From positions 7,208,823-7,272,822 of the forward strand of contig OZ025252.1 of the NCBI GenBank assembly GCA_964019135.1: a stretch of DNA of 64,000 nucleotides. The letters are read 5' to 3'. Shown here piece after piece: positions 10,952 through 64,000 of this stretch. The position numbers and the translations under genes are program-made. This stretch comes from Arenicola marina (lineage: Eukaryota > Annelida > Polychaeta > Arenicolidae). The notes beneath the pieces were generated by a model. The model did not search any database. It was not told the DNA's origin and worked only from the letters and a program-made list of their open reading frames with translations. The first letter of the stretch is position 1. Every line of letters begins with the position of its first letter.

Positions 10952-12123
10952 CTAAGCAGCAAAGACTTTGCTGGCTTCCCGCTGCTGTGTCGCCATATCC
11001 GCTTTGAAGGCCTGAGATGCCGTGGCGGCCGGCCGCTGGGCGAGCGCGGCCGACACCCGGCTCAGGTCGGCGTGCAGTGTCTCCGTGCACCGCTGCTGGT
11101 AATTCTGGGTGCTGGTTGCCGCGTCGGTCAGGGCCGCTCCCAGGCCGTCCAACTGCCGCTTTATCCCGCCAAATCCTGCATGCATCGCCTGCTCCAGGGC
11201 GGTGATTTCGTTTTGAAGACGCAGCCCTGATATCTCGGTGGGGCGCTCAACCGTGGACCGCTCTCCCACTAGACGTCGCAGAGGGGGTGGGGGTGGCACA
11301 CCAGCAGGGCCCCTGAGGGGGGGGGGGTAGCCATGTCGCGTGTCGATTTTAAGAAAAGGTCCATGTCGTGTGTCGATTTTAAGAAAAGGCCTATGTCGCG
11401 TGTCGATTTTAAGAAAAGTTTCATGTCGCTTGTCGCTAAGTCTTATCTCGCATGTCGATTCTAAGACAACCCCAATGTCGCGTTGTCGATTTTAAAATTC
11501 GCCATGTCGCCGTGTCGAAAATGCCCCTCTGGGGCCCTACCAGTGGCCGCCGGCAGCGACCGGTCATCGCTGCCCTCCGCTGGTAATGCACCCCGGGGAG
11601 ACGGCGACACGCACTCGGCCGCAGACAGCGGTAACCGCGCTGTTACCGCGGGCGTTACGCCATCCCCGGCGGCAAACGGTGGCGTCAGCCAACCTACCGA
11701 ACCTTCGTTCACGGCGCTGGCTCCGGAAGCAACGAATGGCCCATCCGAATCCCAGTCACCCAGGGATGGAGTCGCGAATAGTTTCGACCTCATCTCTGTA
11801 GGCGACGCGGTGGTAGAGGGTAGATCCGTTTCCTCGGCTGGCGTCGGGGACACTAATTCATACATGTCAAATTTATCCATTGCGCGTCGTAGATGTCGCG
11901 AGCCGGCGATGTGTGTGGCCAACCGGTGACCGCTCTGGAATGCTAGTTCGCACGCACCGCACTTGTATACCGCAGATTTCCAGGAAGTATGCGTTAGTCG
12001 GTGTCGCGTTAGATTTTTTAACTGTCTCAAACACACTGCACAGGCGAACCCTTCGACGTCCTGAGACATACCTGGGCTCCCGACGATCGTACACCCGCCC
12101 ATCTCTTGCTGTTTCCTGCGCAA
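10952..12123 (-). pseudogene. Extra 3' ORF of the LTR element: C2H2 zinc fingers and a coiled-coil-like C-terminus, split by a MITE
   Basis: This lies between integrase and the 3' LTR, where other elements may carry env or nothing. The upstream part (from 12123) has two C2H2-like motifs: CAVCLRQLKNLTRHRLTH, then CGACELAF with a His pair (RLATHIAGSRH). A Ser/Thr/Pro/Ala-rich stretch follows. The downstream part (10952-11299) is alanine- and glutamine-rich and looks helical. A 235-bp MITE (11305-11539) with its CCAG duplication sits between them. With that insertion set aside, the frame on both sides is in register, so it was one ORF before the insertion. No transmembrane or env-like feature is seen. 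Function unknown; captured host DNA or a lineage-specific element gene are both possible. Confidence 0.65.
11305..11539 (+). mobile_element. Short MITE family with internal 30-bp repeats, copy 1
   Basis: The ends are CAGGGCCCC and GGGGCCCTA (9-bp imperfect inverted repeats), flanked by CCAG on both sides (11301-11304 and 11540-11543). Inside are tandem ~30-bp units built on CATGTCGCGTGTCGATTTTA plus AGAAAAGG. It is nested in the 3' ORF of the LTR element. Other copies: 18598-18828 and 42528-42738. Confidence 0.85.
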
Positions 12124-13071: not shown

Positions 13072-14232
13072 CTAGCATGCCGGCGTCCACTGGAAGGGCT
13101 GACCCGCCTCCAATAGGCGATTCAGCTGCCGTGCTCTCCCTGAGAAGCCGCGAACAAACCGGCGGTAGTAGGCGCATAATCCTAAGAAGCTCCTGACATC
13201 CGTTACGTCACGTGGCCGCGGCCATTCTCTGACTGCGCGCACCTTGTCCGGATCAGGCAGCACGCACTCCGACGGGACGATATGACCCAGGAAAGCCACT
13301 CTGGATTGCAGCCCAGAGTGACATTTGCTCGACTTCAGATTCATCCCTGCCTTCTGTAGCCTTGTTAACACAGCATCTAATCTCTCTAGGTGCTCATCTA
13401 AGGTGTTACTGAACACTATAATGTCGTCAAGGTAAATGATAAGAGTTTCCCACTGCAGTCCTCGCAAAACCATCTCCATACACCGCTCAAATGTGGTTGG
13501 AGCGTTGCGTAATCCCATTTGCACCTTGATGTATTCATACAGACCACGTCTTGTCACAAATGCAGTTTTCGCCCTATCCTGCTCATCTACTTCTAGCTGC
13601 CAATAACCTGATTGTAATTCCAAGGTGGAAAAGAACTTGGCACCGGCAATGGAGTCGAGACAATCAGACGCACGCGGTATCGGGTACGAATCGGGAACGG
13701 TAACGGCGTTAAGCCGACGAAAATCGATGCACGGCCTGACTTGCAGTCCCTCCTTCTTCCGCACGGAGACCATTGGCGACGCCCACGGCGAGGAAGACTC
13801 CTTGATGATACCAGCACTGACTTGCTGGTCGATGATCTTATCCTCTTCCTGAATAAAAGCCCTAGGGGGTCGTCGGGATGGTTGTTTCACTGGTCGTGAA
13901 TTCCCCGTGCCGAGTGTATGCTTCACTGCTGTCACGTGACCAAGATCATCAGCAGACTTTGCAAATAAGTCCACATGGCGGCCAATGAGAACCTTGAGTC
14001 GCTCCCGCTCTTCGGCAGTCAGATCGGTCACCGTCCGCTCATACAACTCTCTGATAGCGACCGGCCAACTGTCTACGTCCCCTTGACGTGTATCCGCATT
14101 AACGGTCACGACGTTAGCCACTCCTGAATGATCGGCTAACCTATCGATATCCACATCCTGTAGCGTACGGATTGTCGTGTTTTTCCGCAGAACGATATCC
14201 TCAGACGACGGATTCAATACGCGCACAATCAA
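13072..14232 (-). pseudogene. Reverse transcriptase (Ty3/gypsy element)
   Basis: A 386-codon open frame with RT landmarks in order: SPWASPMVSVRKK, RPCIDFRRLN, the FSTLELQSGYWQ block (the usual Asp of this motif reads Glu), MGLRNAPTTFERCM, the catalytic YLDD, and VAFLGH. It ends with the RSFLGLCAYYRRF connection typical of Ty3/gypsy. A TAG at 13072-13074 stops it just before RNase H, which continues in the same frame. The Asp-to-Glu change would affect a metal ligand of RT, if the sequence is correct. Confidence 0.9.
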
Positions 14233-14820
14233 GCCTTCCCGCCTCCAAGGTATCCACCAATGTGTTACCCACCAGCACCTCCAATCTTCTGCCGCCAGAC
14301 AGCTTACTTATCAGACGACAATCACCACTCGTATCCGCCGTTGTCTCCACTGTCGACTCACTGAAGGCAGGCACCACAATATCTGTCTTGACCGTCACGC
14401 GGGCTATCCTTGGTTGATCGCTTTCAACTTCCAGACGCTCCTCATTGCCATTTAAGGTCATTTCATTTCTCTTCAATTCAATTCATTCTCGGTAAGAAAA
14501 TCAGGACCTAATAATCCGTCCTCTCTGATAGGCGCCACAAACATATTCCAATTAAATGTTTGCTGAGCGGTTTTGAACTCCACGGCAATTATCCCATCAA
14601 TATCCAAACAATGGTCATCTGCCACCTCCAACCTGACGTTGTCTTCCGGTTTCTTAAGTTGTGGCCGGCGATGAGCAGGAATCGCATTGAACAGTCTTCT
14701 TGACATCACTGTCACTCCCGCTCCGGTGTCTATCACGAACTTACATGTTTGCCCTTCCAATTCCATCGGCAAAACTAACGACGTAACAGTCGTTCTCCGG
14801 CACCTCAACTTTATAGTCAC
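14201..14820 (-). pseudogene. Aspartic protease and linker (Ty3/gypsy element)
   Basis: The frame at 14473-14820 contains VIDTGAGVTVMS, the single-copy active-site DTGA of retropepsin-type proteases, and ends with a GLLGPDFL-type segment. The linker to RT continues in another frame (14201-14476), so a frameshift separates protease from RT. In an intact element the product would cut the polyprotein. Confidence 0.8.
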
Positions 14821-18552: not shown

Positions 18553-18850
18553 TTGGCGCAAGTGCCCCCAGGCAAGCCCGCTTGAAGCAGGCTTGCCTAA
18601 GGCCCCTGAGGGGGGTAGCCATGTCGCGTGTCGATTTTAAGAAAAAGGTCCATGTCGCGTGTTGATTTTAAGAAAAGGTCCATGTCGCGTGTCGATTTTA
18701 AGAAAAGGTCCATGTCACGTGTCGCTAAGTCTTATGTCGCATGTCGATTCTAAGACAACCCCAATGTCGCATTGTCGATTTTAAAAATCGCCGTGTCGCC
18801 ATGTCGAAAAAGCCCCTATGGGGCCCTTTGCCTGGGGGCACTTGCGCTAA
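18553..18850. mobile_element. Short palindromic MITE with a nested MITE
   Basis: Without the nested insertion (18598-18828) this is a near-perfect ~65-bp palindrome, TTGGCGCAAGTGCCCCCAGG to its inverse ending TTGCGCTAA. Its ends match those of fold-back element A. The flanks GGGGTAACC (18544-18552) and GGGCTAACC (18851-18859) differ at one base of nine. It is the minimal form of the same 9-bp-duplication family. Confidence 0.8.
18598..18828 (+). mobile_element. Short MITE family with internal 30-bp repeats, copy 2
   Basis: The ends are TAAGGCCCC and GGGGCCCTT, flanked by TGCC (18594-18597 and 18829-18832). The internal units (CATGTCGCGTGTYGATTTTA, AGAAAAGGTC) are the same as in copy 1, followed by a CTAAGTCTTATGTCGCATG segment. 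It is inserted in the arm of the palindromic MITE at 18553-18850. Confidence 0.87.
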
Positions 18851-26400: not shown

Positions 26401-26433
26401 AAACCGGGACACTATGACATCCTGTACCCGTGA
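20488..26433 (+). CDS. OTUB1: Otubain-type ubiquitin thioesterase (8 exons)
   Basis: A cytosolic OTU cysteine protease that removes ubiquitin, typically Lys48-linked. Exons: 20488-20524, 23572-23643, 23968-24066, 24392-24510, 24861-24945, 25239-25342, 25555-25645, 26236-26433. Recognisable blocks are YDEATMAQQREIEKE, EYAKEDDIYQQKLK, the catalytic RGDGNCFFRAFGFAYFEKLL (Asp and Cys), FNDQGYSDYLVVYLR, EVEPMGKESDHIHI, YMDRGEG and the terminal GHYDILYP with the catalytic His. Exons 2-8 join in phase. Exon 1 (MAEEDSDFSYNP) ends in phase 1 at its best donor while exon 2 needs phase 0, so a small exon or a one-base error (T6 run at 23576-23581) is missing. Lysine-depth and length fit OTUB1 better than OTUB2. 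The last exon is much more GC-rich than the others. A SINE sits 25 bp before its acceptor, and a minisatellite starts at the stop codon. Confidence 0.9.
21122..21970. repeat. Large inverted repeat (~395-bp arms) in OTUB intron 1
   Basis: The arms at about 21122-21519 and 21581-21970 are inverted copies with few differences; shared marks are GTGCAGCCTGCAAATCCTCA, ATAGTTTGTTTCTTTAAAGA, CCGGTTTTACCGGTTTACC and CCCAAGACGTTTTC. The loop is about 60 bp. The intron transcript could form a long hairpin. No clear target duplication was found, and the outer 50 bp on each side are only loosely related. Probably another fold-back element. Confidence 0.9.
22470..22555 (+). repeat. 5S rRNA-like fragment (pseudogene or SINE head)
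   Basis: GAATTAAGCAGG followed by AGTCAGTACTTGAATGAGGC and CGAGTCCACC follows the order of the internal control region of 5S rRNA (A-box GTTAAGCA, C-box AGTACTTGGATGGG). It is too diverged and too short at the 5' side to be a working 5S gene. It lies in OTUB intron 1. It may be the head of a 5S-derived SINE. Confidence 0.5.
22596..23282. mobile_element. MITE with TACCGTAAACTGCC termini
   Basis: The ends TACCGTAAACTGCCTATTTG and its inverse (CAAATAGGCAGTTTACGGTA) bound about 690 bp. The outermost TA may be the target duplication, as in Tc1/mariner-like elements. Inside, GAGCCAGCCACTGGTGTGAC and TGTATAAACAATTAATTGG each occur twice, which indicates an internal duplication. No transposase ORF. 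It lies in OTUB intron 1. Confidence 0.8.
25942..26201 (+). repeat. tRNA-derived SINE, copy 4 (full length, 9-bp target duplication)
   Basis: The head is GATAGCTCAGTGGGCTAGAGCG (A box, quoted in part elsewhere), then a B box GGTTCGAGCCCCG, then the CATGTCTGTGTGGTCGCAGG body and a 3' tail ending AATATACAGCAAACCAAT. CTAAGACAT flanks both sides (25933-25941 and 26202-26210), as expected for LINE-mediated insertion. It is in sense orientation in the last OTUB intron; the right duplication ends 25 bp before the AG of exon 26236-26433. Confidence 0.9.
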
Positions 26434-28250
26434 GCGAGGCGCCCTCTAGCCGTGAGTGAGACGCCCCCTATCCGAAAATGAGGCGCCCTCTACCCGTGGG
26501 TCAGGCGGCCCTCTACCCCGTCGGTCACGCGGCCCTCTACCCCGTTGGTTAGGCGGCCCTCTACCCGTCGGTCAGGCGGCTCTCTACCCGTAGGTCAGGC
26601 GGCCCTCTACCCGTGGGTCAGACGGCATTCTACCCGTGGGTCAGGCAGCCCTCTACCCCGTGGTTCACGCGGCCCTCTACCCGTGGGTCAGACGGCATTC
26701 TACCCGTGGGTCAGGCAGCCCTCTACCCCGTGGTTCACGCGGCCCTCTACCCGTGGGTCAGGCGGCCCTCTACCCGTGGGTCAGGCGGCCCTCTACCCGT
26801 GGGTCAGGCGGCCCTCTACCCGTGGGTCAGGCGGCCCTCTACCCGTGGGTCAGGCAGCCCTCTACCCGTGGGTCAGGCAGTCCTCTACCCGTGGGTCAGG
26901 CGGCCCTCTACCCGTGGGTCAGGCAATCCTCTACCCGTGGGTCAAGCAGTCCTCTACCCGTGGGTCAGGCGACCCTCTACCCGTGGATCAGGCAGCCCTC
27001 TACCCGTGGGTCAGGCAGTCCTCTACCCGTGGGTCAGGCAGCCCTCTACCCGTGGGTCAGGCGGCCCTCTACCCGTGGATCGGGCAGTCCTCTACCCGTG
27101 GGTCAGGCAGTCCTCTACCCGTGGGTCAGACAGTCCTCTACCCGTGGGTCAGGCAGTCCTCTACCCGTGGGTCAGGCGGCCCTCTACCCGTGGGTCAGGC
27201 GGCCCTCTACCCGTGGGTCAGGCAGTCCTCTACCCGTGGGTCAGGCGGCCCTCTACCCGTGGGTCAGGCGGCCCTCTTCCCGTGGGTCAGGCGGCCCTCT
27301 ACCCGTGGGTCAGGCGGCTCTCTACCCGTGGGTCAGGCAGCCCTCTACCCGTGGGTCAGGCAGTCCTCTACCCGTGGGTCAGGCAGCCCTCTACCCGTGG
27401 GTCAGGCGGCCCTCTACCCGTGGGTCAGGCAGTCCTCTACCCGTGGGTCAGGCAGTCCTCTACCCGTGGGTCAGGCAGTCCTCTACCCGTGGGTCAGGCA
27501 GTCCTCTACCCGTGGGTCAGGCAGCCCTCTACCCGTGGGTCAGGCAGTCCTCTACCCGTGGGTCAGGCAGTCCTCTAACCGTGGGTCAGGCGGCCCTCTA
27601 CCCGTGGGTCAGGCAGCCCTCTACCCGTGGGTCAAGCAACCTTTTACCCGTGGGTCAGGCGGCCCTCTACCCGTGGGGTCAGGCGGCCCTCTAACCGTGG
27701 GTCAGGCGGCTCTCTTCCCGTAAGTCAGGCGGCCCTCTACCCGTGGGTCAGGCGGCTCTCTTCCCGTGGGTCAGGCGGCTCTCTTCCCGTGGGTCAGGCG
27801 GCCCTCTACCCGAGGGTCAGGCGGCCCTCTACCTGTGGGTCAGGAAGTCCTCTACCTTTGGGTCAGGCGGCCCTCTACCCGTGGGTCAGGCGGCCCTCTA
27901 CCCATGGGTCAGGCGGCCCTCTACCCGTGGGTCAGGCAGCCCTCTACCCGTGGGTCAGGCGGCCCTCTACCCGTGGGTCAGGCAGCCCTCTACCCGTAGG
28001 TCAAACGGCCGTCTACCCGTTAGTCAAGCAGTCCTCTACCCTTGGGTCAGGCGGCCCTCTACCCGTGGGTCAGGCGGCCCTCTACCCGTTGGTCAGGCAG
28101 CCCTCTACCCGTGGGTCAGGCAACCTTCTACCCGTTGGCCAGGCGGCCCTCTACCCGTGGGTCAGGCAGCCCTCTACCCGTGGGTCAGGCAGCCCTCTAC
28201 CCGTGGGTCAGGCAACCTTCTACCCGTGGGTGAGACGGCCCTCTACCGAT
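26421..28250. repeat. Minisatellite, 23-bp unit, beginning at the OTUB stop codon
   Basis: About 79 copies of CCTCTACCCGTGGGTCAGGC plus GGC. The first unit, CCTGTACCCGTGAGCGAGGC, is the last OTUB codons plus TGA. The next two units (CCTCTAGCCGTGAGTGAGAC; CCTATCCGAAAATGAGGC) are intermediates. Units vary mainly between GGCGGCC and GGCAGTC/GGCAGCC. A 23-bp unit rotates the frame, so three overlapping frames stay open (PLPVGQAALYPWVRRPSTRG type); these are not genes. It lies in the presumptive OTUB 3' UTR. Confidence 0.95.
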
Positions 28251-40600: not shown

Positions 40601-43600
40601 TCCGGGCCTGTGTCTCTGGCCCACTTCCAACATTTACCCGCGAAGGCGTGACGCTAGGGGTGATGCCCCCCCCCCCCCCCCCCCCCCACCGCGCCCATCC
40701 TCGCACCTAGCTGCAATGGGCAGCTCTCGAAAGGGAAGTCAGCTACCGTGTCCGGGTAGCAAACCAACGACAATGCCCGCCAAGATCTCCTCAACATAAC
40801 ATGACCCCACGATCGTGCGACAAACTGGCTCCAAGTATTGCACTTGACTTTTAATACCTGCATGTGAGATACCGTATTTATAACCCTTTATGTGACAAGC
40901 GGTACATGCCAGAGAGATGCATCCTGTTTACTAAAACTAAGCTATAAACGCATGCCATGCAGATAGATCATGGTGGCAACAACAAAGATTTACACACTAT
41001 TAACATATATTGAGGTCTCAGTTTTACGCCATACACTGACCTCGTTTAATTGAGGTTTGCGTTGTTGTGATTGGTTGGTAAGATGCTGGGTGCGATGCAA
41101 TCGTCTTTGTCGCTATTCTATCCAACCCATGGCCCTGAAGACAAGTCATTTATGAGTCAAATAAATGTGCAAACTGAAAGGCGCCAGAGAACTCTAGTCT
41201 TCTTACGCTCGGTTGACGGTGCGTTTATGCGAGGCGAAATAATGCGCAGTTTGCCAAATGTCAAGGTCACGGAAATCCTGTTTGTTGGCTCCGTTGACAA
41301 GTAACTAATAATTTGTGGTGGCGTTGGTTACGGCAGCTCTAGGCTTCTGAAAACTGAAGATTGTATGTGGGCGTGTGTGTTGGAGGAGAGCGGGGGGGGG
41401 GGGGGGCGGGGGGAGTACCTCACAATAGATGATTATCTGGGAAGCCCTAGACGTTCGTTTCTGGTGAACAGACGAGTAACTACCTCTGATATTTGATAAG
41501 CCTGGTGCCACTAGCTTCGACGAGACTGGAACTTTTATAGCAATATACTTACATGCGCCATCTTAGATTTTTTACACTTGAGAAACAAGACTAAAAGTAT
41601 CTCAAAAATTATGATGCATATGTTTTATATCTCTTGGAGTCTATAAAACAAACATTTCAGCATAAAACTGCGCGGTTTATTTATATCGCGCTCGGACGTG
41701 ATAGCGAGCCGCGGCCGACATCACACACAAAATACCGAACGGCGAACAGGCGCGCAGGGATCTAAAGCCGGCCACCAACTTCTGCTCCGGTGACCAAAAT
41801 GCTTCTCTCCGGATAGCCCACAGGCTTTGAGGATTTAAATCCACACAAAATGTACTTATTTGACATGGAGAAGAGGTTGGTAATACAAAAAATTACGGAA
41901 TATATTGCTTTAAGCGGAAAACTAATCCTGACTCAAGCTAGATCAACATGGATGCAACTAGGTTTTTTGCTGTCCGTCATAGAGGATAGCAACATCTTAT
42001 GATCGAAAACATTTACTCTCTGAATTGATTTGAGGAACATTTAACTGAAGGTATAACACCCGCTGGCGTAAATAAAGGGCAAACTGCCAATAGGTATTCC
42101 AAGAAGCACCGCCAGAAAAGGCCAGAAGTTCACGCATCGCTGGATGAGAAGAAAGAAAGGTGTCTGCTCCATATAGCTGAGCCATATGCAGGCCCCTGGA
42201 TATGTATATGGTCCTTTGTTACTCGCAGTGCGAGCGCCGTGCATGGTATTTATTTGGTTCACCTCTGCAGCCTCATGTATCAACATTTGAGGGGCGAAAC
42301 CTAAGCAACGGGTTACCCCGCGGTACCAGTGAATTAACCCGTACTGTCATACTACTTACCGCCCCATACCATGCCAATGAATTATCCCCTCTACAGCCAT
42401 ACTACTTGCAGCTCCATATCCCGTACCAATGAATGAACCCAATGTACTGCCATACTGCTGGCAACTCCATGCCAAACCAATGAATTAACTCTCTCTACTT
42501 TCATACTATTTGCAGCCCCATGACATATAGGGCCCCAGAGGGTTTTTTTCGACACGGCGACACGACGATTTTTTAAATCGACAACGCGACATTGGGGTTG
42601 TCTTAGAATCGACATGCGACATAAGACTTAGCGACACGCGACATGGACCTTTTCTTAAAATCGACACGCGACATGGACCTTTTCTTAAAATCGACACGCG
42701 ACATGGCTACCCCCCCCCCCCCCCGCTCAGGGGCCCTACATATCAATGGATTATCCCTATATACTGCCACAATACTTGCCGTCCCCATCCCATACCAAAA
42801 GAATTAACCCTCTCACGTGCCTCACTACTGGCCGCCCCATCACATACCAAAGAATTAACCATCTGTGTACACACGCCACTTGCAGCCCCATACCATACCA
42901 ATGAATTAACCACTGTACAACCATACTTGCCATACCGATGAATTAATTAAGCCCCTCTGCAGCCACTATACTTGCAGCCCCATGCCAGACCAATGAATTA
43001 ACACTCACTGCAGCCAAAAGACTTGCAGTCCCATGTCATACCATTGAATTAACCCTCACTGCAGCCACAAGACTTTCAGTCCCATGCCATGCTAATGAAT
43101 TAACCCTCTCTGCAGCCACAATGTTGCAGTCCCATGATATGTCAATAAATTAACCTTTCTCTGCAGCCACTATACTTGCAGTCCTATGCCATGCCAATGA
43201 CCTAACGCTGTCTGCAGCCACACTATATGCAGCCCGTTCCCATACCAATGCATTAACCCTTTCACCTGCCTCTACACTTGCAGGGACAACGTGTGTTCGC
43301 GCGACGTCATCTGGTACGGGTACACGTACCGTAACGTGACGCGGCTCTGTTACACCGTAGAGCGGGTGGAGCCGTGTAGAGAGGACGATGACGACCATAG
43401 GGGGCGTACCTGGTACGACACCCGCCATCCCCACCGGGGCCGCCGCTCCGAGTACTCAGACTGGGATGATGATGACGATGATGATGACTCTAGACGCCTC
43501 ACCTATCACAGGCCATGCTACAGAATCGTGTGAGTACAGACACAGCTAATAAGTCGGTATCTTAGTATTTCCATAAATGAAATTGAATAAGGCTGAATAG

Positions 43601-46600
43601 TTATCGCCGATAATATTTACGGTTTAGAGACTTTGACGATCACCCAAACACCCAAACGTCGTCGTTTTCATTTGGTCCTTGGAAACCTAATATCATACAT
43701 ATAGTGTTGTTTCTGCAGACGCAATAATAGACCAATCAGTATTGCCCCTCACTCATAGTAATCGACCAATCAGCGTTGCCTCTGGCAGTAGTCAACCAAT
43801 CAGCATTATGTCTGGCAGTTGTCAACCAATCAATCAGCGTTATTTCTGCTCTGGCAGGAGTCGACTAATCAGCATAGCCAGGGGCGGATCCAGGCGGGGC
43901 CGACCCAGCCCCGGCCTGCCCTTTTGGGGCCAACATTTATATAATTTATACCATTTAACATATGAAAAACCAAAACAGGCCCCCCCCTTTCCAGCATACC
44001 CGGATCCGACATTGAAACTGCCTCCCCCCCTATCCAGATTTTCTGGATACGCCCCTGATTTCCCCTCGCAGTAATCGACTATCCCATTTACCCCCCACCC
44101 CCACCCCACACACTTCCTACGCGCCATTATTGCATGACCCTGCCATAATGTAACTTATTTATTCATTATCATTTTCTACATCACGTTTTTGTATCCAGAG
44201 TTAATATGTTCATTCCAGGCGAAAAATATGCTCCCAGTTAGTAAGAACCTGCGTGAGGTACCGGAAGACGGAATACTTCTGTTGCCAGGGGACGGAACCC
44301 GATGGGATGGGGCACTGTGGAAGTAAGAGCATATACCATCTGTACCCGGCTAAACATCTGCCATATGGATGTTTGTGGATACTGTTAAGTTCCTTCTGAC
44401 ACCACATTTCGGTTCTCTCGTCGGGCCGCGTAGTGAAATTCAACACATGTCGTTCTTTTCTCAGCTTTATTTCACAATAATATTCCATGCCACACGATCC
44501 GTCTATCTCTCTATCTCTCTCTCAAGTCCCCCACGTCTCCCGGTCTTCCCTTATTTATACGTCACTCTATCGCCCCTCCCCTAAGTTGGGGGTACCACCC
44601 CAACCCAGGGATTCACCCCCTCGCTAAGTTTGGGGTACCACCCCAACTTGGGGCCTCTCCCCTCCACTAAGTTGGGGGTACTACCCCAACCCAGGATTCA
44701 CCCCCTCGCTAAGTTGGGGGTACCACCCCAACCCAGGATTCACCCCCTCGCTAAGTTGGGGGTACCACCCCAACTTGGGGCCTCTCCCCTCCACTAAGTT
44801 GGGGGTACCACCCCAACCCAGGGATGCACCCCCTCGCTAAGTTGGGGGTACCACCCCAACTTGGGGCCTCTCCCCTCCACTAAGTTGGGGGTACCACCCC
44901 AACCCAGGATTCACCCCCTCGCTAAGTTGGGGGTACCACCCCAACTTGGGGCCTCTCCCCTCCACTAAGTTGGGGGTACCACCCCAACCCAGGATTCACC
45001 CCCTCGCTAAGTTGGGGGTACCACCCCAACCCAGGATTCACCCCCTCGCTAAGTTGGGGGTACCACCCCAACTTGGGGCCTCTCCCCTCCACTAAGTTGG
45101 GGGTACCACCCCAACCCAGGGATTCACCCCCTCGCTAAGTTGGGGGTACCACCCCAACCCAGAGCTTCCCCCCTCCCCCTATCCGAGAGCGTCCGCCCGC
45201 CTGCGCTGATCACTCCTGCATGCTGCCCCTGCCTTGACCCCGGTTTATGACCCCGCTGCCCACCACCGCTCTACCTACTATTGCTACTCTCCCACGATAA
45301 CCCCCAGCCCCGTCTAGCCCTACCAAATCCCTCTACAATACATATATATATATATATATATACATATATAAATGCTTCTTATGGACTGAGCACATTTGTT
45401 CTCACTTATATACCATAATGATCATTTTGTCATATATATATACCTAAAGCCTATGTTGTGACATATTCGTACCTAAAGCATATATTGTGACACATTAATA
45501 CTATATTCTAATTGCCAACAGAGATCAGTGCGTGCAGCCGTGACAACGGAGGGTGTGAGCAACTCTGTGTCCATGACGAATACCGCGGACACTACTGCAC
45601 GTGTTTCCCTGGTTACGATCTTTACGAGGACATTCACTGCGTTGGTAGGTCTCTTGCGCATGCGCATCTGTGTCATCATACATGTGGAGAAGATATCTTG
45701 ATGTGTCTTCAAATAGGTGTCTTTATTTTTCAAGCCATTGCTAGTAGACAGTTGTGAAAGGCCATTCGGCTGTGATTAGGTTTCTATATTTGAATCTTTG
45801 ACACAGGTTTAACTGGCTTTGCTTGTCACTGGCGACCGAGTTGCACGGCACATTAATTTGATATCTAGGGTTTTATTACCCGAACGGGAGCGGAGGAGAG
45901 GGGAGCGGGGCATTATTTTACTGCAGGGATGGGGCCCGTGGGCAGGGCATATGGAGAGAATGTGTACACCTAGCCATTTTTGAAGTGCCCCCCTCCCCAC
46001 CCTTCCCTTGGTTTTCCATGCGGTTTAACCACACATTTTTTACCTAATATATTACTCGGTGTATTGACAACGAGAAGTTGACTAACTGAGCTGAATCTCC
46101 CTACCACGTAAATGGATATGTATAACTGGGTTTAGCTTTACACCGTACATACACCACCAGAATGTAACACCTGCAAGAGGCATACAGTTATCTCTGTGTT
46201 TTCAGATCTGAATGAGTGTGAAGTCGACAATGGCGGGTGTGACCACAACTGCCACAACATAGAGGGAGATCACTACTGTAGCTGCAGGAACGGCTACAGG
46301 CTTACGGGTCCCACCAACTGCACAGGTGCGTCCTCCCCCCCCCCCCCCCATAAAGAGACATGGTATAGAGCAGACCCCCCATCCCATCCCCAATCCCCAA
46401 CCCCAACCCCACCCGCCTCCCCCATTCTCCCACAAGCCATGCGGCAGCCACCTCGCCGGGCCACGTGTTCACGGCGCTGCGGTCCTGCTATGACGTCACA
46501 AGTTGACCCCTCCCCGGTGTCAACTGGCATGCACGGAGCCTGCCATGTGTAACTTAGCGTGGGTCACCCGGGACGAAGGGGTCGGGCCAGAGATCGCATA

Positions 46601-52861: not shown

Positions 52862-55104
52862 ACAAATGAGATTAACAGAGAACACCTCGTTACAGAACTC
52901 GCAGAAAGGCGGGAAAGGTTAACGTCTGCTTCACAGGATCACGACGATGTACGGATGAAAACAGTCACGCCATATGTACAGAAGGCACGGACAATCAAAT
53001 ATAACATCTTCAGTGTGACATTTATAATATACACATGTACATATATATTATCTATACATTTACATATACATTATATATGCATGTAGATATACATATAATC
53101 TATACATGTGCATGTATATTATTAATTAACATTGTGACACAATTAAAGTCAGCGTGACTCGCGATGGCAACAACTTGGGTTCCGTAAGAGGCAAACACTG
53201 AGAACGATGCTAAAGATTCAGTTCGTTTTAAAATAACTTTGACACTTCAGATAACACCAAGGTTGAGAATAACCTAAAAACTGGCGTACCAAATGCACTG
53301 TCAGCGAGAGACCAAAGTGACATCGAATACAATAATATCACAGATAAAGACCATGCCCCTAGCGGAGAAAACCACCCGTGCGGAGATTTTCGGAACTAAC
53401 ACATAATGGCGGGGTGACCCAATCCCAGCAGGAATCTCTAATACATATCTCACGGCAATGGAAGTTGATGGTAGTTAAAATATTTTGACCATAATAATTC
53501 AACAATAACGCAAGTTGGCTAATTCTCTAAAATGACCTGAAAATATCTCCGATCTCATTCACACAGATCGACAACATTAAGCCGAACACATTCAGCATAT
53601 TAGATAGATGTTCAGGTGAGGTTATTAGCGCTGTTGCCCAGTAATATTCTCTTCCACTTACACCTGCTTCTTACGTAACGTCCCGTGGAATATCCTTCCC
53701 CCAGTCCTGTTCGCAGACAGAGATTAGATCGCTTCTCGTTGCTTGTGAGAGATTTGAAATGGGTGACCGCTACCAAAGACACATTCAACTATAATTCAGG
53801 TTTGTCGTGGAGAGGCGGGGCGAGTTAGCTTAGGTCAGGACTGAGATATACTCCGCTCAATAATTATAAAGTGAGACCTTTCATACGCATCCGAAACGGG
53901 TCTTTCACACTTCCGACGGAAATTGAGAAGAAAATATTCCGTAAGACGATTTCTTGCGGACACTTAACGTCTCATACCACATACTAACGCTGCCTACCAA
54001 CCCCATCCTCCGACAACTCTTCACGAGATATAAATATGTAGGGTTCTAAGTGGGACAACAGTCACAACCATACCAATAAATGTTTCGAACTTTTGAGAGA
54101 CTGAAACAATGAAAATATAACCGGTCAAACACTGCTGCCGACATTCACCGGTTCAATTCCTCTCCCTATCATTATGCATGTACTTCCCTCCTTTCCTTTA
54201 TCATAAGTAACACGAGAAAATAGATTTTAAACAACCTTGCAACCTTTAACCACCGCGACAACCATCAACAAGTAACGAGATAATATGTAGATAATATCTA
54301 CAGTAAGTAAGCATTTTGAGAAGTGAAACTTCTCAAGTCGAGTCATACATCACTTACCGCAAAGACATTAAGAGAGGAAATAAGTACAGAACGGGAGAGG
54401 TTAACGGCGCTTGAGTGTCTGGCTACACACTCGGCGATCACGTCACGTGGCAAGAGGCTTACACTGAGCATGCGCAGTGGCCTTACAGGCAGCGTGCAGG
54501 CGATAACGTATTAATTGATTTCTCTGCGTCACTTCCGCTTAACTTAGCGGCTAAACAAACCAAACTTAGAACAATACTGACCGACTTCGATCAGTAACAA
54601 AGAGGATATACTCTACAATGGGTTTTGATTGTTGACCACGAATACAACTATATGAATTTTTAACACCGAATACAGCGATTCTTATCTCCGAATTATGTAT
54701 CATATGATTCTACGATTTCAAGCCTGTTTACCTTAAATCACTTCAATAGAAACTGTAACAAATTTCCTCTCGAAAGTGCGATCTATTCCGCGAGAGAAGA
54801 GCATGAAGCTAGCTGTGTTACAATATATCTATGAACAAACCACGCGAGACTTAACATGCCTACGGCACCGACGTTTGCTGAACTTTAAATTGAGCAATCA
54901 TTCCAGAAGTACCCTCATCGATTTTTGTTTGCACTCACGCGGAGTAGTTTGTAAACAACCAAAACAACATTTAACAACTGCCATTCTCATCGACAGGCCA
55001 TCAAGGCGACACAAGCATCGCGCCTCGCTGATTGGTCCGCCAGAAGTCTAGTGTGACATATCTAGGTCAAGGCAGGTCACGCTCTTCCATCCAACCGCGT
55101 CCCA

Positions 55105-58100
55105 TCAACTCGTTAGTCGTCTAAACGTGTCCAGTTCGTGGATACTTTGCGATAACCTGAAAGAGTAGAAAATTGAAAGCGGTCAGATAAAGACACTTGA
55201 CGTGGATGAGTGGCTTCATGCTTTCATATCCTAAGACTGGCACGGTACGAAGTCTCAGTAAGGCAATGGAGTGTCTTGACCTCTGGTTGTTAACATCACA
55301 ACCCCCTCTCTTGTGTTTCAAGGCACACAAGTTTCTTACGCGATAGAAATAGATGCGAAGTACACAGTTTGCATCCATCAACATTTGTTTTTTTTCCGTC
55401 AAGATGTATAACCCTATATCCGTTGAAATTCACACGCATACATTCATAATACATACATCTCACTTTCTATATATATATTTCATTATTATTTTATTATCGC
55501 TTTCACATATACTCTCACATAACATCTCTAGTGAAATACGGTTGATATGTTAGGCCACACTTATCCGCCATAAACCTGAATGGGGCCCAGGGCTATGTGA
55601 CTAGAAAGGATGCACGTGTGAGGTTCGAACCCGGAACGCTACCCCTGGACCCCTCCCCCCCCCCCCCCCCCCACGGCGGGCCCCTCAGCTTGAGCGACGT
55701 ACCTGCCGAAGGCGTTGAGGAGAGCGACGATCTCCCCGCGCTGGAGCTGGAAGGGCAGATCCCCCTTCCGGTGGTCCTGGGTCACGGTGGATCCCGGCCG
55801 CATCGAGTCTCCCGAAAACAGGATCTTTAGCGCCGTGCCCATGCCAGTTATCTGGAAACACACAGCGTCCACATCACACACCGTCCACATCACACACTGT
55901 ATAAGATCACACAGCGTCCACATCACACAGCCTCCTCATCACACACTGTATAAGATCACACACCGTCCACATCACACACCGTCCACATCACACACCGTCC
56001 ACATCACACACCGTCCTCATCACACAGCGTCCACATCACACAGCGTCCACATCACACAGCGTCCACATCACACAGCGCCCTCATCACACAGCGCCCACAT
56101 CACACACCGTCCACATCACACAGCGTCCACATCACACAGCGTCCACATCACACAGCGTCCACATCACACAACGTCCACATCACACAGCGCCCTCATCACA
56201 CAGCGCCCTCATCACACACCGTCCACATCACACACCGTCCACATCACACAGCGTCCACATCACACACCGTCCTCATCACACCGTCCACATCACACAACGT
56301 CCACATCACACAGCGTCCACATCACACAGCGTCCACATCACACACCGTCCTCATCACACACCGTCCTCATCACACACCGTCCTCATCACACACCGTCCTC
56401 ATCACACACCGTCCTCATCACACACCGTCCTCATCACACACCGTCCTCATCACACACCGTCCACATCACACACCGTCCACATCACACACCGTCCACATCA
56501 CACACCGTCCACATCACACACCGTCCACATCACACACCGTCCACATCACACAGCGTCCACATCACACAGCGTCCACATCACACAGGGTCCACATCACACA
56601 GGGTCCACATCACACACCGTCCACATCACACACCGTCCTCATCACACACCGTCCACATCACACAGCGCCCTCATCACACAGCGTCCACATCACACAGCGT
56701 CCACATCACACACCGTCCACATCACACACCGTCCTCATCACACACCGTCCACATCACACACCGTCCACATCACACACCGTCCACATCACACACCGTCCAC
56801 ATCACACACCGTCCACATCACACACCGTCCACATCACACACCGTCCACATCACACACCGTCCACATCACACCGTCCACATCACACAGCGTCCACATCACA
56901 CCGTCCACATCACACAGCGTCCACATCACACAGCGTCCACATCACACAGGGTCCACATCACACACCGTCCTCATCACACACCGTCCTCATCACACACCGT
57001 CCACATCACACACCGTCCACATCACACACCGTCCACATCACACACCGTCCACATCACACACCGTCCACATCACACACCGTCCACATCACACACCGTCCAC
57101 ATCACGCACCGTCCACATCACACACCGTCCACATCACACACCGTCCACATCACACAGCGTCCACATCACACAGCGTCCACATCACACAGCGTCCACATCA
57201 CACAGCGTCCACATCACACAGCGTCCACATCACACAGCGTCCACATCACACAGCGTCCACATCACACAGCGTCCACATCACACACCGTCCACATCACACA
57301 CCGTCCACATCACACACCGTCCTCATCACACACCGTCCTCATCACACACCGCCCACATCACACACCGTCCACATCACACCGTCCACATCACACAGCGTCC
57401 ACATCACACAGCGTCCACATCACACAGGGTCCACATCACACACCGTCCTCATCACACACCGTCCTCATCACACACCGTCCACATCACACACCGTCCACAT
57501 TACACCGTCCACATCACACAGCGTCCACATCACACAGCGTCCACATCACACAGGGTCCACATCACACAGCGTCCACATCACACCGTCCACATCACACCGC
57601 GTCCACATCACACACCGTCCTCATCACACACCGTCCTCATCACACACCGTCCACATCACACACCGTCCACATCACACACCGTCCACATCACACCGTCCAC
57701 ATCACACAGCGTCCACATCACACCGTCCTCATCACACACCGTCCTCATCACACACCGTCCACATCACACAGCGTCCACATCACACAGCGTCCACATCACA
57801 CACCGTCCACATCACACCGTCCACATCACACCGTCCACATCACACAGCGTCCACATCACACAGCGTCCACATCACACAGCGTCCACATCACACAGCGTCC
57901 ACATCACACACCGTCCACATCACACACCGTCCACATCACACACCGTCCACATCACACCGTCCACATCACACACCGTCCTCATCACACACCGTCCTCATCA
58001 CACACCGTCCACATCACACACCGTCCACATCACACACCGTCCTCATCACACACCGTCCACATCACACACCGTCCACATCACACACCGTCCTCATCACACA

Positions 58101-61100
58101 CCGTCCTCATCACACACCGTCCACACCGTCCTCATCACACACCGTCATCACACAGCGTCCACACCACACAGCGTCCACATCACACACCGTCATCACACAG
58201 CGTCCATATCACACACCGTCCACATCACACACCGTCCACATCACACACCGTCCTCATCACACACCGTCCTCATCACACAGCGTCCACATCACACACCGTC
58301 CACATCACACACCGTCCTCATCACACACCGCCCTCATCACACACCGTCCACATCAGACACCGTCCACATCAGACACCGTCCACATCAGACACCGTCCACA
58401 TCAGACACCGTCCTCATCACACAGCGTCCACATCACACACCGTCCACATCACACACCGTCCACATCACACACCGTCCACATCACACACCGTCCTCATCAC
58501 ACACCGTCCACATCACACACCGTCCACATCACACACCGTCCTCATCACACAGCGTCCACATCACACACCGTCCACATCACACACCGTCCACATCACACAC
58601 CGTCCACATCAGAAACCGTCCTCATCACACAGCGTCCACATCACACACCGTCCACATCACACACCGTCCACATCACACACCGTCCACATCACACACCGTC
58701 CTCATCACACACCGTCCACATCACACGCCGTCATCACACAGCGTCCACACCACACAGCGTCCACATCACACACCGTCATCACACAGCGTCCACATCACAC
58801 AGCGTCCTCATCACACACCGTCCACATCACACACCGTCCACATCACACACCGTCCACATCACACACCGTCCACATCACACACCGTCCACATCACACACCG
58901 TCCTCATCACACACCGTCATCACACAGCGTCCACACCACACCGTCCACATCACACACCGTCATCACACAGCGTCCACATCACACAGCGTCCTCATCACAC
59001 ACCGTCCCCATCACACACCGTCCACATCACACACCGTCCACATCACACACCGTCCACATCACACACCGTCATCACACAGCGTCCACACCACACAGCGTCC
59101 ACATCACACACCGTCCACATCACACACCGTCCACATCACACACCGTCCTCATCCCACACCGTCCTCATCACACACCGTCCTCATCACACACCGTCCTCAT
59201 CACACAGCGTCCACATCACACAGCGTCCACATCACACACCGTCCTCATCACACACCGTCCTCATCACACACCGTCCTCATCACACACCGTCCTCATCACA
59301 CACCGTCCACATCACACAGCGTCCACATCACACACCGTCCTCATCACACAGCGTCCACATCACACAGCGTCCACATCATACAGCGTCCACATCACACACC
59401 GTCCACATCACACAGCGTCCACATCACACAGCGTCCACATCACACAGCGTCCACATCACACAGCGTCCACATCACACACCGTCCTCATCACACACCGTCC
59501 ACATCACACACCGTCCACATCACACACCGTCCACATCACACCGTCCACATCACACAGCGTCCACATCACACAGCGTCCACATCACACACCGACCTCATCA
59601 CACACCGTCCACATCACACACCGTCCTCATCACACACCGTCCACATCACACAGCGTCCACATCACACAGCGTCCACATCACACACCGTCCTCATCACACA
59701 CCGTCCACATCACACAGCGTCCACATCACACACCGACCTCATCACACACCGTCCACATCACACACCGTCCTCATCACACACCGTCCACATCACACAGCGT
59801 CCACATCACACAGCGTCCACATCATACAGCGTCCACATCACACACCGTCCACATCACACACCGTCCACATCACACACCGTCCTCATCACACACCGTCCAC
59901 ATCATACAGCGTCCACATCACACACCGTCCTCGTCACACACCGTCCTCATCACACACCGTCCTCATCACACACCGTCCACATCACACAGCGTCCACATCA
60001 CACACCGTCCTCATCACACAGCGTCCACATCACACAGCGTCCTCATCACACACCGTCCTCATCACACACCGTCCACATCACACAGCGTCCACATCACACA
60101 CCGTCCTCATCACACACCGTCCACATCATACAGCGTCAAGTACTTTATGGAAGGTGTAAATCAGATTTTTCTGTATTCCCATCGTGCTTAAAGAAATATT
60201 TGTTCTTTCGCACCATATTGACTATAAGTAGAACTAGCACGTCGTTCAGATGCTTGTGGTGTTAGCCGGTAGGGATGGCTATAAGACACAAGTAATATCA
60301 TCCGTAAATTATTTGAAGGTCTCCTACTATCAATGGATATTGCATCTAAAACGTCGATAGCTGCAGTTTGCCCCACATCGACACTTAATTGTCACAACCC
60401 ACCTGCAGTTTGCCCCACATGGACACTTAATTGTCACAACCCACCTGCAGTTTGCCCCACATCGACACTTAATTGTCACAACCCACCTGCAGTTTGCCCC
60501 ACATCGACACTTAATTGTCACAACCCACCTGTAGTTTGCCCCACATCGACACTTAATTGTCACAACCCACCTGCAGTTTGCCCCACATCGACACTTAATT
60601 GTCACAACCCACCTGCAGTTTGCCCCACATGGACACTTAATTGTCACAACCCACCTGCAGTTTGCCCCACGGCAGACACTTAATTGTCACAACCCACCTG
60701 CAGTTTGCCCCACATCGACACTTAATTGTCACAACCCACCTGCAGTTTGCCCCACATCGACACTTAATTGTCACAACCCACCTGCAGTTTGCCCCACATG
60801 GACACTTAATTGTCACAACCCACCTGCAGTTTGCCCCACATCGACACTTAATTGTCACAACCCACCTGCAGTTTGCCCCACAGCAGACACTTAATTGTCA
60901 CAACCCACCTGCAGTTTGCCCCACGGCAGACACTTAATTGTCACAACCCACCTGCAGTTTGCCCCACAGCCGACACTTAATTGTCACAACCCACCTGCAG
61001 TTTGCCCCACATCGACACTTGCCACAATCCACCTGCAGTTTGCCTCACAACCGACACTTGTCACAACCCACCTGCTGTTTCCAACACAGCCGACACTTGC

Positions 61101-62817
61101 CACAACCCACCGGCAGTTTGCCCCATGGCAGACACTTGTCACAGTCCACCTGCATTTTACCCCACAAGCGACACTTGTCACAGCCCACTGCAGTTTGCCC
61201 CACAAGCGACACTTGCCACAACCCACCTGCTGTTTCCAACACAGCCGACACTTGCCAAAACCCACCGGCAGTTTGCCCCATGGCAGACACTTGTCACAAT
61301 CCACCTGCATTTTACCCCACAAGCGACACTTGTCACAACCCACTGCAGTTTGCCCCACAAGCGACACTTGTCACAACCCACCAGCAGTTTGCCTCACAAG
61401 CGACACTTGTCACAACCCACTTGAAGTTTGCCCCACAGCAGACACTCAATTGTCACAACCCCCCTGCTTTTTGCCCCACAGCCGACACTTAATTGTCACA
61501 ACCCACCTGCAGTTTGCCCCACAGCCGACACTTGTCACATCCTACGCAGTCCATTATCCGCGAAATGTTTCGGAAGTGGATTTTAAAGTTCTCCTGCAAA
61601 TTAGAACAAAATGTAATAAACAAAAGCTACATGGATTGGTTATATATTCAGGACGCTTTAACCACTTTAAGTCATATGCGTCAATTGGAGAAGGGAGGGA
61701 GAGTGGAGCCATGTCCCCGGGGGTAACTCCCTACTCTTTGCGACGAAGGACGTGGGTTCTTTATCCTGCGACCACACAGAGATGGCCACAGCGGGGTTCA
61801 AACCATCGATCCACGTGCCGTTAGGCTCTCAGGTGGCCAGAGCACTCAAGGCGAGCGCTCTAACCCACTAAGCTACTGGGCCGGCCCCAAAAAGCTACAT
61901 AGAAGTTAAGAAATGGAATATTTGTTTCACAACATACACATTTACGAAATGGAAACCATATGAATACGGTTGCACCCTTACTATGGCTGCGTGTGTACAT
62001 GTACATAGAAATACAAACCATTAGTTTCTTTTGGTCTCCCTGGAACAGTTGACTTTCGTCGAAGTGATTTGGGAAAGTTCTGTAAAGAAAAAAAGTGAAA
62101 AGGTGAAACGTCGAAATACAACTATTCAGCATCATCTTCCACAATGAAGGATATTAATTCACTTTGCCATTATCTCAATTAGACCTATATATTCTATATA
62201 CGTAATATCTGTGGTCACTTTACAAGTGTAGAGCTCAGAGGGTATGTTGGAGGGGAGGGGAGGAGGGGGGGGGAGAATAATTATTATCGAGTACAGTTAA
62301 TGATTCAACCAATTAATCGGGTTGACAAAGAAAAACTTACTTTGCTATTTCCAAAATATCATTTAATGTTTCTTTGACCTCAGTATCTTCCTTGTCACTG
62401 CCAGTATAGTAGACTTCCTGAAAAAGAGACGCCATTTTGAATTGACATGTTGGTGTTTTGGGCCACTTCTGTGCCCACGAAAGCTAACACGAAATCGGGC
62501 CATGAAACTTCTCGGAAATAATGTTGGATGAAACACTCCCCAGATGCAGGCACCAGGGATCGAACCCAACACCAGGGACGCAAGGACAGCACCGGGAAAT
62601 TCCAGTCGAAACCGGCTAAAAATCTCCGGAAGGGGGCGCTGACTGACCTGCTGCAGGTAGGGAGCCACCTTGACAAGAGCCCGGAGCTCCACGAGGTAGG
62701 TGAAGTAGAGGTTCTTCAGGCGGTTGGGACCCTCCCCGTACGTCTTGTCGGGATCAAACCGCTTCCGGAACTCCTCCACGTTAGGACCCCACACCGGCTC
62801 GTCCCACAGCGTCTTGC
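55105..62817 (-). CDS. ERO1: ER oxidoreductin-1, C-terminal six exons (5' end outside the window)
   Basis: ERO1 is the ER-luminal FAD flavoprotein that oxidises protein disulfide isomerase and passes electrons to oxygen. Exons (minus): 62648-62817, 62341-62417, 62019-62079, 61507-61593, 55703-55851, 55105-55156 (TGA at 55107-55105). All phases agree and give about 198 residues, roughly 40% of the family length. Blocks: [20 protein letters not shown] (core helix), NFPNHFDE-like [34 protein letters not shown] (the active-site CxxCxxC exon), [24 protein letters not shown] and the terminal [11 protein letters not shown]. The upstream exon with the start of the protein was not seen to 64000. The intron after the active-site exon is 5.65 kb and almost wholly tandem repeat. 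It ends 6.2 kb from the convergent EMI/EGF gene. Confidence 0.93.
55857..60137. repeat. VNTR, 16-bp unit (CCGTCCACATCACACA), ~267 copies
   Basis: 4.28 kb of nearly pure 16-mers. Two positions vary independently: ACACCG/ACAGCG and GTCCACAT/GTCCTCAT. A 14-bp short unit (missing CA) recurs, and a few units carry other changes (ACAGGG, ACATCAGACACC, GCCCTC). The first part has TGTATAAGATCACAC variants. It abuts the acceptor of ERO1 exon 55703-55851. A unit of 3n+1 with no stop in any rotation gives a 1516-codon frame of the [16 protein letters not shown] type, which is an artefact. The sense (minus) transcript would be GU-rich. Confidence 0.97.
60366..61506. repeat. Minisatellite made of the ERO1 active-site exon end and 5' splice site
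   Basis: On the minus strand the array starts exactly at the donor of exon 61507-61593. The unit is GTGGGTTGTGACAAGTGTCG plus CTTGTGGGGCAAACTGCAG (39 bp), which copies the last exon codons ([11 protein letters not shown]) joined to GTGGGT. Near the exon, units are diverse and a four-unit block occurs twice (about 61030-61165 and 61175-61380). Farther away (60366-61020) a 42-bp version with an inserted TTAA is nearly uniform. About 28 units; about fifteen keep CTGCAG/GTGGGT, a usable-looking splice donor. Confidence 0.93.
61633..61889 (-). repeat. tRNA-derived SINE, copy 6 (full length, 11-bp target duplication)
   Basis: On the minus strand: GGGGCCGGCCCAGTAGCTTA head, GGTTTGAACCCCGC B box, body and tail as in copy 4. 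AAAAGCTACAT flanks it (61622-61632 and 61890-61900). It is in sense orientation in the ERO1 intron, with its tail 39 bp from the acceptor of the active-site exon. Confidence 0.9.
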
Positions 62818-64000
62818 CTGGAAGCAAGATGGCGTCGGTCAGTCACGTGACGTTTCCCGGTCACAGCGAGATATTTGTGTGAATATAGCTACGAGATCTG
62901 GAGTCAGACTGGTGGGTTTTGATCAGTGTTCTCACGAAAGGGACATGGTGTTGTCATGGTCATGGTTACGGGCATGGTAAGTGTTGCCAAGGTGGAAAAA
63001 GGGCCACGGTCAGTTGTCATAGTTACGGTCATATTGATATAATGTAACAACACCCAAATATGTACATAATTCATATACAATAAATGAATTCAAAAATATT
63101 ATTGTTCACACAAATTTAGGTATATTTAACTTTTCATTTTAAGCGGCGTATGACCTAAAGAGACTTATACCATAACTATCAGTTGACGAATTCACAAGGT
63201 GCAGCCAGTAATAAATCATCGTGACGGTCCTAAAATATGTACCCTGCCGTTACCCGAACAGTTCGCCGCTTTACAGTTCGAAAGTACGTTGCTTTGGCGT
63301 TTGGGAGTGACGTTGAACAAATGCTGGTTTTACATTATTATTATATACCGTTCAAGATACACCAGCCGACAACTATCGTCACAAATAACTACTGCGTGTT
63401 TCGGCTGGGTTTTGTTTTTTGTTATTTCCGCACGGAAGAACATCATCCAACCGGGACTATGACCGCTTTCCCGCTACGTACATTGCAGCGAAACTCATTA
63501 CATTCGCCGGTGGCATTTATATCAGCTGTTTTCCTGAATTTATATAAGCCTTCATGTCATTCTTAACATGTTATCCTTTGAAAGTCAACATATTTATCTA
63601 CACAGATTGGGCTTTGTTTTTTAGAAAACCCCCTGTTAACCTATGATAAGATTTGAATGCAGCTATGAATCCGTACTCGCCCATTGCGTGCTCTGTACGT
63701 ATACGACTATGCAGCGTAGAAGTGTTATACATAACTTTCACATGCAGTGAAGACCTATCGACTGTGCAGCAGACTAATACCTTAATATTACATGTAAATA
63801 TCCCAAAAAAATCGCATAGTGCTTGGGTGAGAGGAATTTTCATGGTGAGAGTGAACGAGGTATCGAGTAGGTTGTACATATACCCAGTCCGTGTCACAGA
63901 GGGTGCGTGGTGTCACAGAGGGTGCGTGGTGTCACAGAGAAAGTACCGGCTCCAGAAAGTGTATGGACAAGAGATAAAAAGCTTGGATTCTCGTCTGTGA
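62818..64000. other. Probable ERO1 intron or upstream flank; no feature recognised
   Basis: Upstream of the first visible ERO1 exon, which begins in phase 1 and needs an earlier exon. I found no ERO1-like sequence here. There is a G run at about 62254-62272 just left of it, and a short triplicated GTGTCACAGAGGGTGCGTG at 63890-63940. Small ORFs look non-coding. Confidence 0.4.

What the first reader, a model, noticed from the sequence alone, without database searches (positions are those of the whole stretch)
60366..61593. Minisatellite grown from the ERO1 active-site exon and its splice donor
Seen directly: exon 61507-61593 ends [11 protein letters not shown] followed by GTGGGT, and the next 1.1 kb of intron is ~28 tandem copies of that same junction. 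The original unit is 39 bp, so it copies 13 codons in frame, including the CxxC cysteines. About fifteen copies keep an exon-like CTGCAG joined to GTGGGT, so each is a decoy 5' splice site. Use of the first downstream decoy would add a TAA (in the AATTAAGTG variant), while units at 61024-61380 would add extra CxxC modules. The conserved ERO1 active site is thus the seed of an expanding repeat. The splicing consequence is inference.
Basis: partly seen in the sequence, partly recalled or inferred. Interest (0 to 1): 0.88.

Follow-up and report, generated by a model that had tools for sequence, protein, structure and literature searches.

The report
Exon-edge repeat array in worm ERO1
In what is probably an annelid worm, the end of the exon encoding the active site of the ER enzyme ERO1, together with its splice signal, has been copied 28 times into the next intron; this is a clear case of a kind of repeat already known from lancelets, probably harmless to splicing.

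Summary
The ERO1 exon 61593..61507 (- strand) ends [20 protein letters not shown], and the intron opens with 28 tandem copies (27 full, 1 partial) of that exon end plus donor, 61500-60361; exon against array scores 61, best of 1000 dinucleotide shuffles 29. Fourteen intronic copies keep CTGCAG|GTGGGT and 17 keep CAG|GTGGGT. The intron ends at 55852; most of the rest is a second, unrelated 16-bp array that stops 5 nt before the acceptor AG, so 95.9% of 5655 nt is tandem repeat. One inference fails: extra CxxC modules cannot be read through, because use of any downstream donor retains an in-frame TAA at 61491. The window is probably annelid. The structure matches amphioxus "mirage" minisatellites, tandem repeats spanning exon-intron boundaries (PMC3087553), and resembles the human IFI6 donor minisatellite. 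Donor changes give no firm evidence of selection for or against decoys. Verdict: a new member of a known kind, in a phylum where my searches found none; splicing and instability are untested.

The parts
61507..61593 (-). ERO1 exon D (87 nt) with the C-terminal active-site motif [14 protein letters not shown]; its last 33 nt are the exonic part of unit 0
61498..61509 (-). authentic junction CAG|GTGGGTTGT; donor GT at 61506-61505
60361..61500 (-). array 1: 28 intronic copies (27 full of 38-43 nt, 1 partial of 36 nt) of exon end + donor
61489..61491 (-). in-frame TAA in copy 1, met by use of any downstream junction donor
60989..61414 (-). copies 3-13, 38-39 nt, without the TTAA insert; copies 4-7 and 8-11 are a repeated block (151 of 155 columns identical)
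60361..60988 (-). copies 14-28, 42-43 nt (last partial), with the TTAA insert, nearly homogeneous; 14 of these 15 end in CAG|GTGGGT
60138..60360 (-). only sizeable non-repeat part of the intron (223 nt)
55859..60137 (-). array 2: 16-bp unit, about 270 copies, ending 5 nt before the acceptor AG
55703..55851 (-). next ERO1 exon E ([16 protein letters not shown]...), acceptor TTTCCAG ending at 55852
55105..55156 (-). last ERO1 exon ([16 protein letters not shown]), stop included
62019..62079 (-). upstream ERO1 exon C
   Evidence: one search had its start one base off
62341..62417 (-). upstream ERO1 exon B
62648..62817 (-). upstream ERO1 exon A; acceptor AG at 62819-62818 (start placed by the AG; one search printed it one base early)

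Best explanation
An exon-boundary minisatellite of the 'mirage' type. A slippage or unequal-exchange event tandemly duplicated the last 33 nt of the ERO1 exon together with the first 6 nt of the intron; further exchange and conversion built 28 copies, all intronic because the upstream-most donor went on being used. The array is most likely a passive, neutral intron part: the real donor is first, ends an exon with its own good acceptor, and the nearest copies are weaker donors, so ERO1 mRNA is made normally; a mis-chosen copy would give a stop after five residues and probably decay of the transcript. Shown: origin, copy structure, stop, donor-likeness. Inferred: mechanism of duplication, neutrality, normal splicing, instability.
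For: Exon-array similarity far above shuffles; exons A, B, C and E lie within the range of their own 200 shuffles. Unit 0 straddles the junction, and copy 14 equals exon end plus donor plus a TTAA insert. Block repeat of copies 4-7 in 8-11, homogeneous distal copies (mean distance 0.06) against diverged proximal ones (0.19), and all four combinations of the TTAA and CGA-TG variants, as unequal exchange and conversion would leave. ERO1 frame open across six exons. With recalled donor frequencies the real donor scores 9.94; candidates within 279 nt score 7.74 or less; the first equal one is 280 nt away. For amphioxus mirages, Adh3 data and globin RT-PCR are reported to suggest no interference with regular splicing (PMC3087553 section 16).
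Against: No RNA or population data; 17 copies match the real donor base for base (-3 to +6), and in human IFI6 repeat units are reported to be used as donors (PMC4526556 passage), so silence is not guaranteed. Predicted structure does not favour the real donor over the copies. One assembly only; array length could be wrong. The distal array edge is not diverged, unlike the published amphioxus cluster.
Confidence: 0.8

Rival explanations
1. The array is a regulatory switch: copies are used as alternative donors in some conditions, always adding the TAA, so array length tunes ERO1 level through transcript decay.
For: 17 copies identical to the real donor over nine bases; every such use ends at 61491; IFI6 precedent of repeat units used as donors. 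No donor change in copies 14-27 (0 seen, 6.7 expected, P 0.00035 if copies were independent).
Against: Copies 14-27 are near-identical and not independent, so that P is much too small. In copies 1-13 donor changes match chance (12 seen, 12.5 expected; 7 of 24 distinct changes, 5.5 expected). The six nearest copies are all altered at the donor, the opposite of what a switch needs.
Confidence: 0.07
2. Selection has disarmed the copies nearest the real donor, since they alone compete with it.
For: Each of copies 1-6 carries exactly one change in the donor nine-mer; the first intact one is 280 nt away.
Against: P 0.06 for six of six units, found after looking; hits 6 against 5.1 expected; copies are not independent. 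The array edge next to the exon is simply more diverged.
Confidence: 0.12
3. The intron itself was born from this array by the Rogers AGGT tandem-duplication route.
For: Most copies begin GT and end AG at CAG|GT, as that model requires; mirages were proposed as a source of introns (PMC3087553); model described in PMC4974935.
Against: Exon E, which follows the intron, shows no similarity to array 1 (15 against shuffle mean 15.1); the intron's 3' end is array 2. Intron position in relatives could not be checked.
Confidence: 0.06
4. Assembly artefact: copies multiplied by the assembler.
For: Distal copies are nearly identical; reads could not be seen; no array protein frame was found elsewhere.
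Against: Copies 1-13 differ by about 0.19 on average and fall into ordered types, which multiplication of one copy by an assembler would not make. Copy number may still be off.
Confidence: 0.04

Closest known systems
Amphioxus 'mirage' minisatellites (Adh3, globins BflGb6 and BflGb9; also named for PGBD5 and troponin C)
   [quoted passage not shown] units 10-160 bp (PMC3087553 section 16; PMC3902484, one passage).
   Different: Here probably an annelid, 28 intronic copies of 38-43 nt (last partial), an in-frame stop in copy 1, a diverged edge on the exon side only. For amphioxus, undisturbed splicing was suggested, and somatic instability (Adh3) and haplotype differences (BflGb6) reported; neither is known here.
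Human IFI6 (6-16, G1P3) donor minisatellite (Turri et al. 1995)
   [quoted passage not shown]).
   Different: There two downstream repeat units are reported to be used as donors. The paper itself was not read; that its unit is about 12 bp and lies at an exon end is recalled.
[quoted passage not shown] potato RdRp, ATP2A1, fission yeast 24-bp repeats)
   Same: Tandem copying of a segment with AGGT supplies splice sites (PMC4974935, passages).
   Different: Exon E beyond the intron shows no trace of array 1.
Earthworm metallothionein intron-1 minisatellites
   Same: Large minisatellite-length repeat clusters inside an annelid gene intron (PMC12783039, passages).
   Different: In the passages read they are not described as copies of an exon boundary.

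Membership tests
mirage minisatellite | tandem repeat whose unit spans an exon-intron boundary | tested here: met
   unit 0 = last 33 nt of exon + GTGGGT
mirage minisatellite | many but not all units keep AG/GT signals | tested here: met
   17 of 28 intronic copies (7, 11, 13, 14-27) end in CAG|GTGGGT; copies 1-6, 8-10 and 12 altered, 28 cut
mirage minisatellite | concerted evolution within the cluster | tested here: met
   mean distance 0.06 in copies 14-28, 0.19 in copies 1-13, 0.21 between; block 4-7 repeated as 8-11
mirage minisatellite | cluster boundaries left out of homogenisation (seen in BflGb6) | tested here: inconclusive
   exon-side copies diverged, but the far edge is not, apart from its cut last copy
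mirage minisatellite | does not disturb regular splicing | not testable with these tools
   no RNA data
mirage minisatellite | length instability between haplotypes or tissues | not testable with these tools
   one assembly; no reads
mirage minisatellite | cephalochordate host (the published cases seen here) | tested here: not met
   ERO1 falls in a set of 15 rows (99/94) whose named members are annelids; no cephalochordate row was in that tree. Host is not part of the definition, so this extends the range
IFI6-type donor minisatellite | downstream units used as donors | not testable with these tools
   no RNA data
Rogers-type gained intron | both intron ends derive from the duplicated segment | tested here: not met
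   exon E against array 1 scores 15, mean of 200 shuffles 15.1; the intron's 3' end is array 2

The most novel reading that the evidence does not exclude
Array length is a heritable, perhaps somatically shifting, dial on ERO1: the more intact copies, the more often a copy is used as donor, the more transcripts end at the copy-1 TAA, and the lower the oxidising capacity of the ER.
Probability: 0.05. Interest if true: 0.8.

Novelty: new member of a known kind. Interest (0 to 1): 0.45.

Why it matters
It suggests that exon-boundary minisatellites are not a lancelet peculiarity but arise in a distant animal phylum, and it offers a natural test of how a spliceosome picks one donor among 18 sites (one real, 17 copies) identical over nine bases. 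An intron that is 96% tandem repeat, with arrays at both splice sites, is a strong case for such a test.

Tried and rejected
Array 2 as a second mirage: its similarity to exon E is at the shuffle mean (15 against 15.0), so no; it scored 28 against exon A (200 shuffles, maximum 26, none reaching 28) and 23 against exon D (5 of 200 shuffles reach it); I take both as composition, because array 2 is very G-rich, but did not test that further. Structure hiding the copies: the opening probability of the real donor lies within, or at the edge of, the range of the 17 copies at all three settings. Selection on donors: see rivals. Copies elsewhere in the window: 0 hits outside 55859-61593 at E up to 1e-3. 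The array in other assemblies, via one distal frame (60330-60686): 739 candidates, none with E up to 1; weak, since gene prediction would often miss it. tRNA genes in the window: none; Rfam matches in 55000-64000: none. My first tracing of exon C was one base off, corrected. An earlier count said that array 2 stops 7 nt from the acceptor AG; the sequence gives 5 nt to the AG and 7 nt to the exon. Donor frequencies are recalled, human-like, approximate.

Papers: PMC3087553 section 16 read whole plus passages and references; PMC3902484, PMC12783039, PMC4526556, PMC2572611, PMC4974935 passages only. Canestro 2002 and Gao and Lynch 2009 are not held, so known only through citation; one search asked for a DOI that I recalled wrongly. 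No report of such an array in an annelid or in ERO1 was seen in the listings of searches (several list only the best of more hits; most listed papers were not opened); the library holds only openly licensed papers.

Full report
What is there. On the minus strand the window carries the C-terminal part of an ERO1 gene, six exons with one open frame: 62817-62648, 62417-62341, 62079-62019, 61593-61507, 55851-55703 and 55156-55105. Exon 61593-61507 matches human ERO1-alpha and yeast Ero1; in Pfam's ERO1 model it ends at position 306 and the next exon starts at 307, so the junction KLQ|ITG is sound; it agrees with the protein of the annelid Capitella.

The array. Reading from the exon into the intron, unit 0 is the last 33 nt of the exon plus GTGGGT; 28 copies follow to 60361, the last one cut. 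Against 1000 dinucleotide shuffles of the exon the similarity (61) is far out of range (maximum 29); the four other ERO1 exons tested stay within the range of 200 shuffles each; the last exon was not tested. Copies 1, 2 and 14-28 carry a four-base insert (TTAA, TTGA in copy 2); copies 3-13 do not. Copies 4-7 recur as 8-11 (151 of 155 columns). Copies 14-28 are nearly uniform (mean distance 0.06), copies 1-13 diverged (0.19). All four combinations of the insert and the CGA-TG variant occur, which points to exchange or conversion between copies, or to repeated mutation.

How it may have begun. The exon reads GTAGGATGTGAC where the intron reads GTGGGTTGTGAC, 39 nt further on. A duplication between these similar stretches would give exactly the 39-nt, 13-codon unit. 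Of the 27 full copies 22 end in GTGGGT, five in a one- or two-base variant of it, and none in GTAGGA, which fits an original intron start GTGGGT better than a donor copied from the exon. This step is inference: the intron's likeness could itself be a product of the duplication.

Splicing. With recalled donor frequencies the real donor scores 9.94. The junction donors 86, 125, 202 and 241 nt downstream score 6.1 to 7.7, copy 1 has no GT, and that of copy 4 falls under the printing threshold of 4; the first of 17 equal copies lies 280 nt away. Extension past the real donor gives VGCDN and then TAA at 61491-61489. Pyrimidine content upstream of five sampled array CAGs (unit 0 and four intronic copies) is 0.375-0.44, against 0.56-0.94 at five ERO1 acceptors, so cassette use is unlikely too. 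None of 238 proteins in hand (236 listed, which list 120 each of 760 and 3409 matches, plus 2 array translations) shows read-through. Of the 236, 139 have a C..CR.WG motif and one (P0130, a fish entry) has two; I did not look into that one.

Is the donor under selection? In copies 1-6 every copy has one change in the donor nine-mer (P 0.06, seen after looking); over copies 1-13 the count is at chance (12 against 12.5); copies 14-27 have none (6.7 expected, P 0.00035 if independent, which they are not). I draw no selection from this. Structure prediction does not set the real donor apart.

The rest of the intron. Array 2, about 270 copies of a 16-bp unit, fills 60137-55859 and stops 5 nt before the acceptor AG. 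Together the arrays make 95.9% of 5655 nt. Both are G-rich on the coding strand (skew 0.47 and 0.69, against -0.10 between them and -0.04 upstream). Such skew is known to favour RNA-DNA hybrids (recalled), a possible reason for instability, not tested.

Whose genome. The best named ERO1 relatives are Lamellibrachia (72% over 72% of the query) and Capitella (71% over all of it). In a tree of 37 rows that I chose, the window lies in a set of 15 (99/94) whose named members besides it are Capitella, Lamellibrachia and Helobdella; the fourth annelid, Owenia, lies outside it with weaker support (85/75); the window fills only 42% of the columns, and no cephalochordate row was included. Phylum labels are recalled. 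The closest row by identity is unnamed (75%).

Known kind. Amphioxus mirages fit in three of the four structural features tested, the fourth (edges) being mixed (PMC3087553; PMC3902484), and human IFI6 shows that such copies can be used as donors. Hence a new member of a known kind, in another phylum; splicing and length change remain to be measured.

Noticed in passing
55859-60137: 4.3-kb array of a 16-bp unit in the same ERO1 intron, ending 5 nt before the acceptor AG, so any branch point probably lies inside it; two units near the acceptor carry CTTATACAG, acceptor-like.
   Followed up: partly
60361-60686 (-): The 42-nt copies keep a frame open that reads a 14-residue Cys-rich repeat ([14 protein letters not shown]); probably incidental; no relatives.
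   Followed up: partly
61640-61890 (-): Stretch with tRNA-like A-box and B-box look (SINE-like, by eye) in the intron upstream of exon D; ARAGORN and Rfam report nothing.
   Followed up: partly
13072-14307 (-): Reverse transcriptase domain (RVT_1, E 7.3e-29), a retroelement.
   Followed up: no
46136-46552 (+): EGF-like / FXa_inhibition domain, E 1.4e-7 but just under the Pfam cut-off.
   Followed up: no
11331-11435, 18619-18724, 42632-42706: The same 30-bp repeat (CCATGTCGCGTGTCGATTTTAAGAAAAGGT) forms short arrays at three places, the third on the other strand.
   Followed up: no
26421-28247 and 6522-8025: Two further long arrays, 23 bp x 79 and 30 bp x 50; whether they touch exon ends was not tested.
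   Followed up: no
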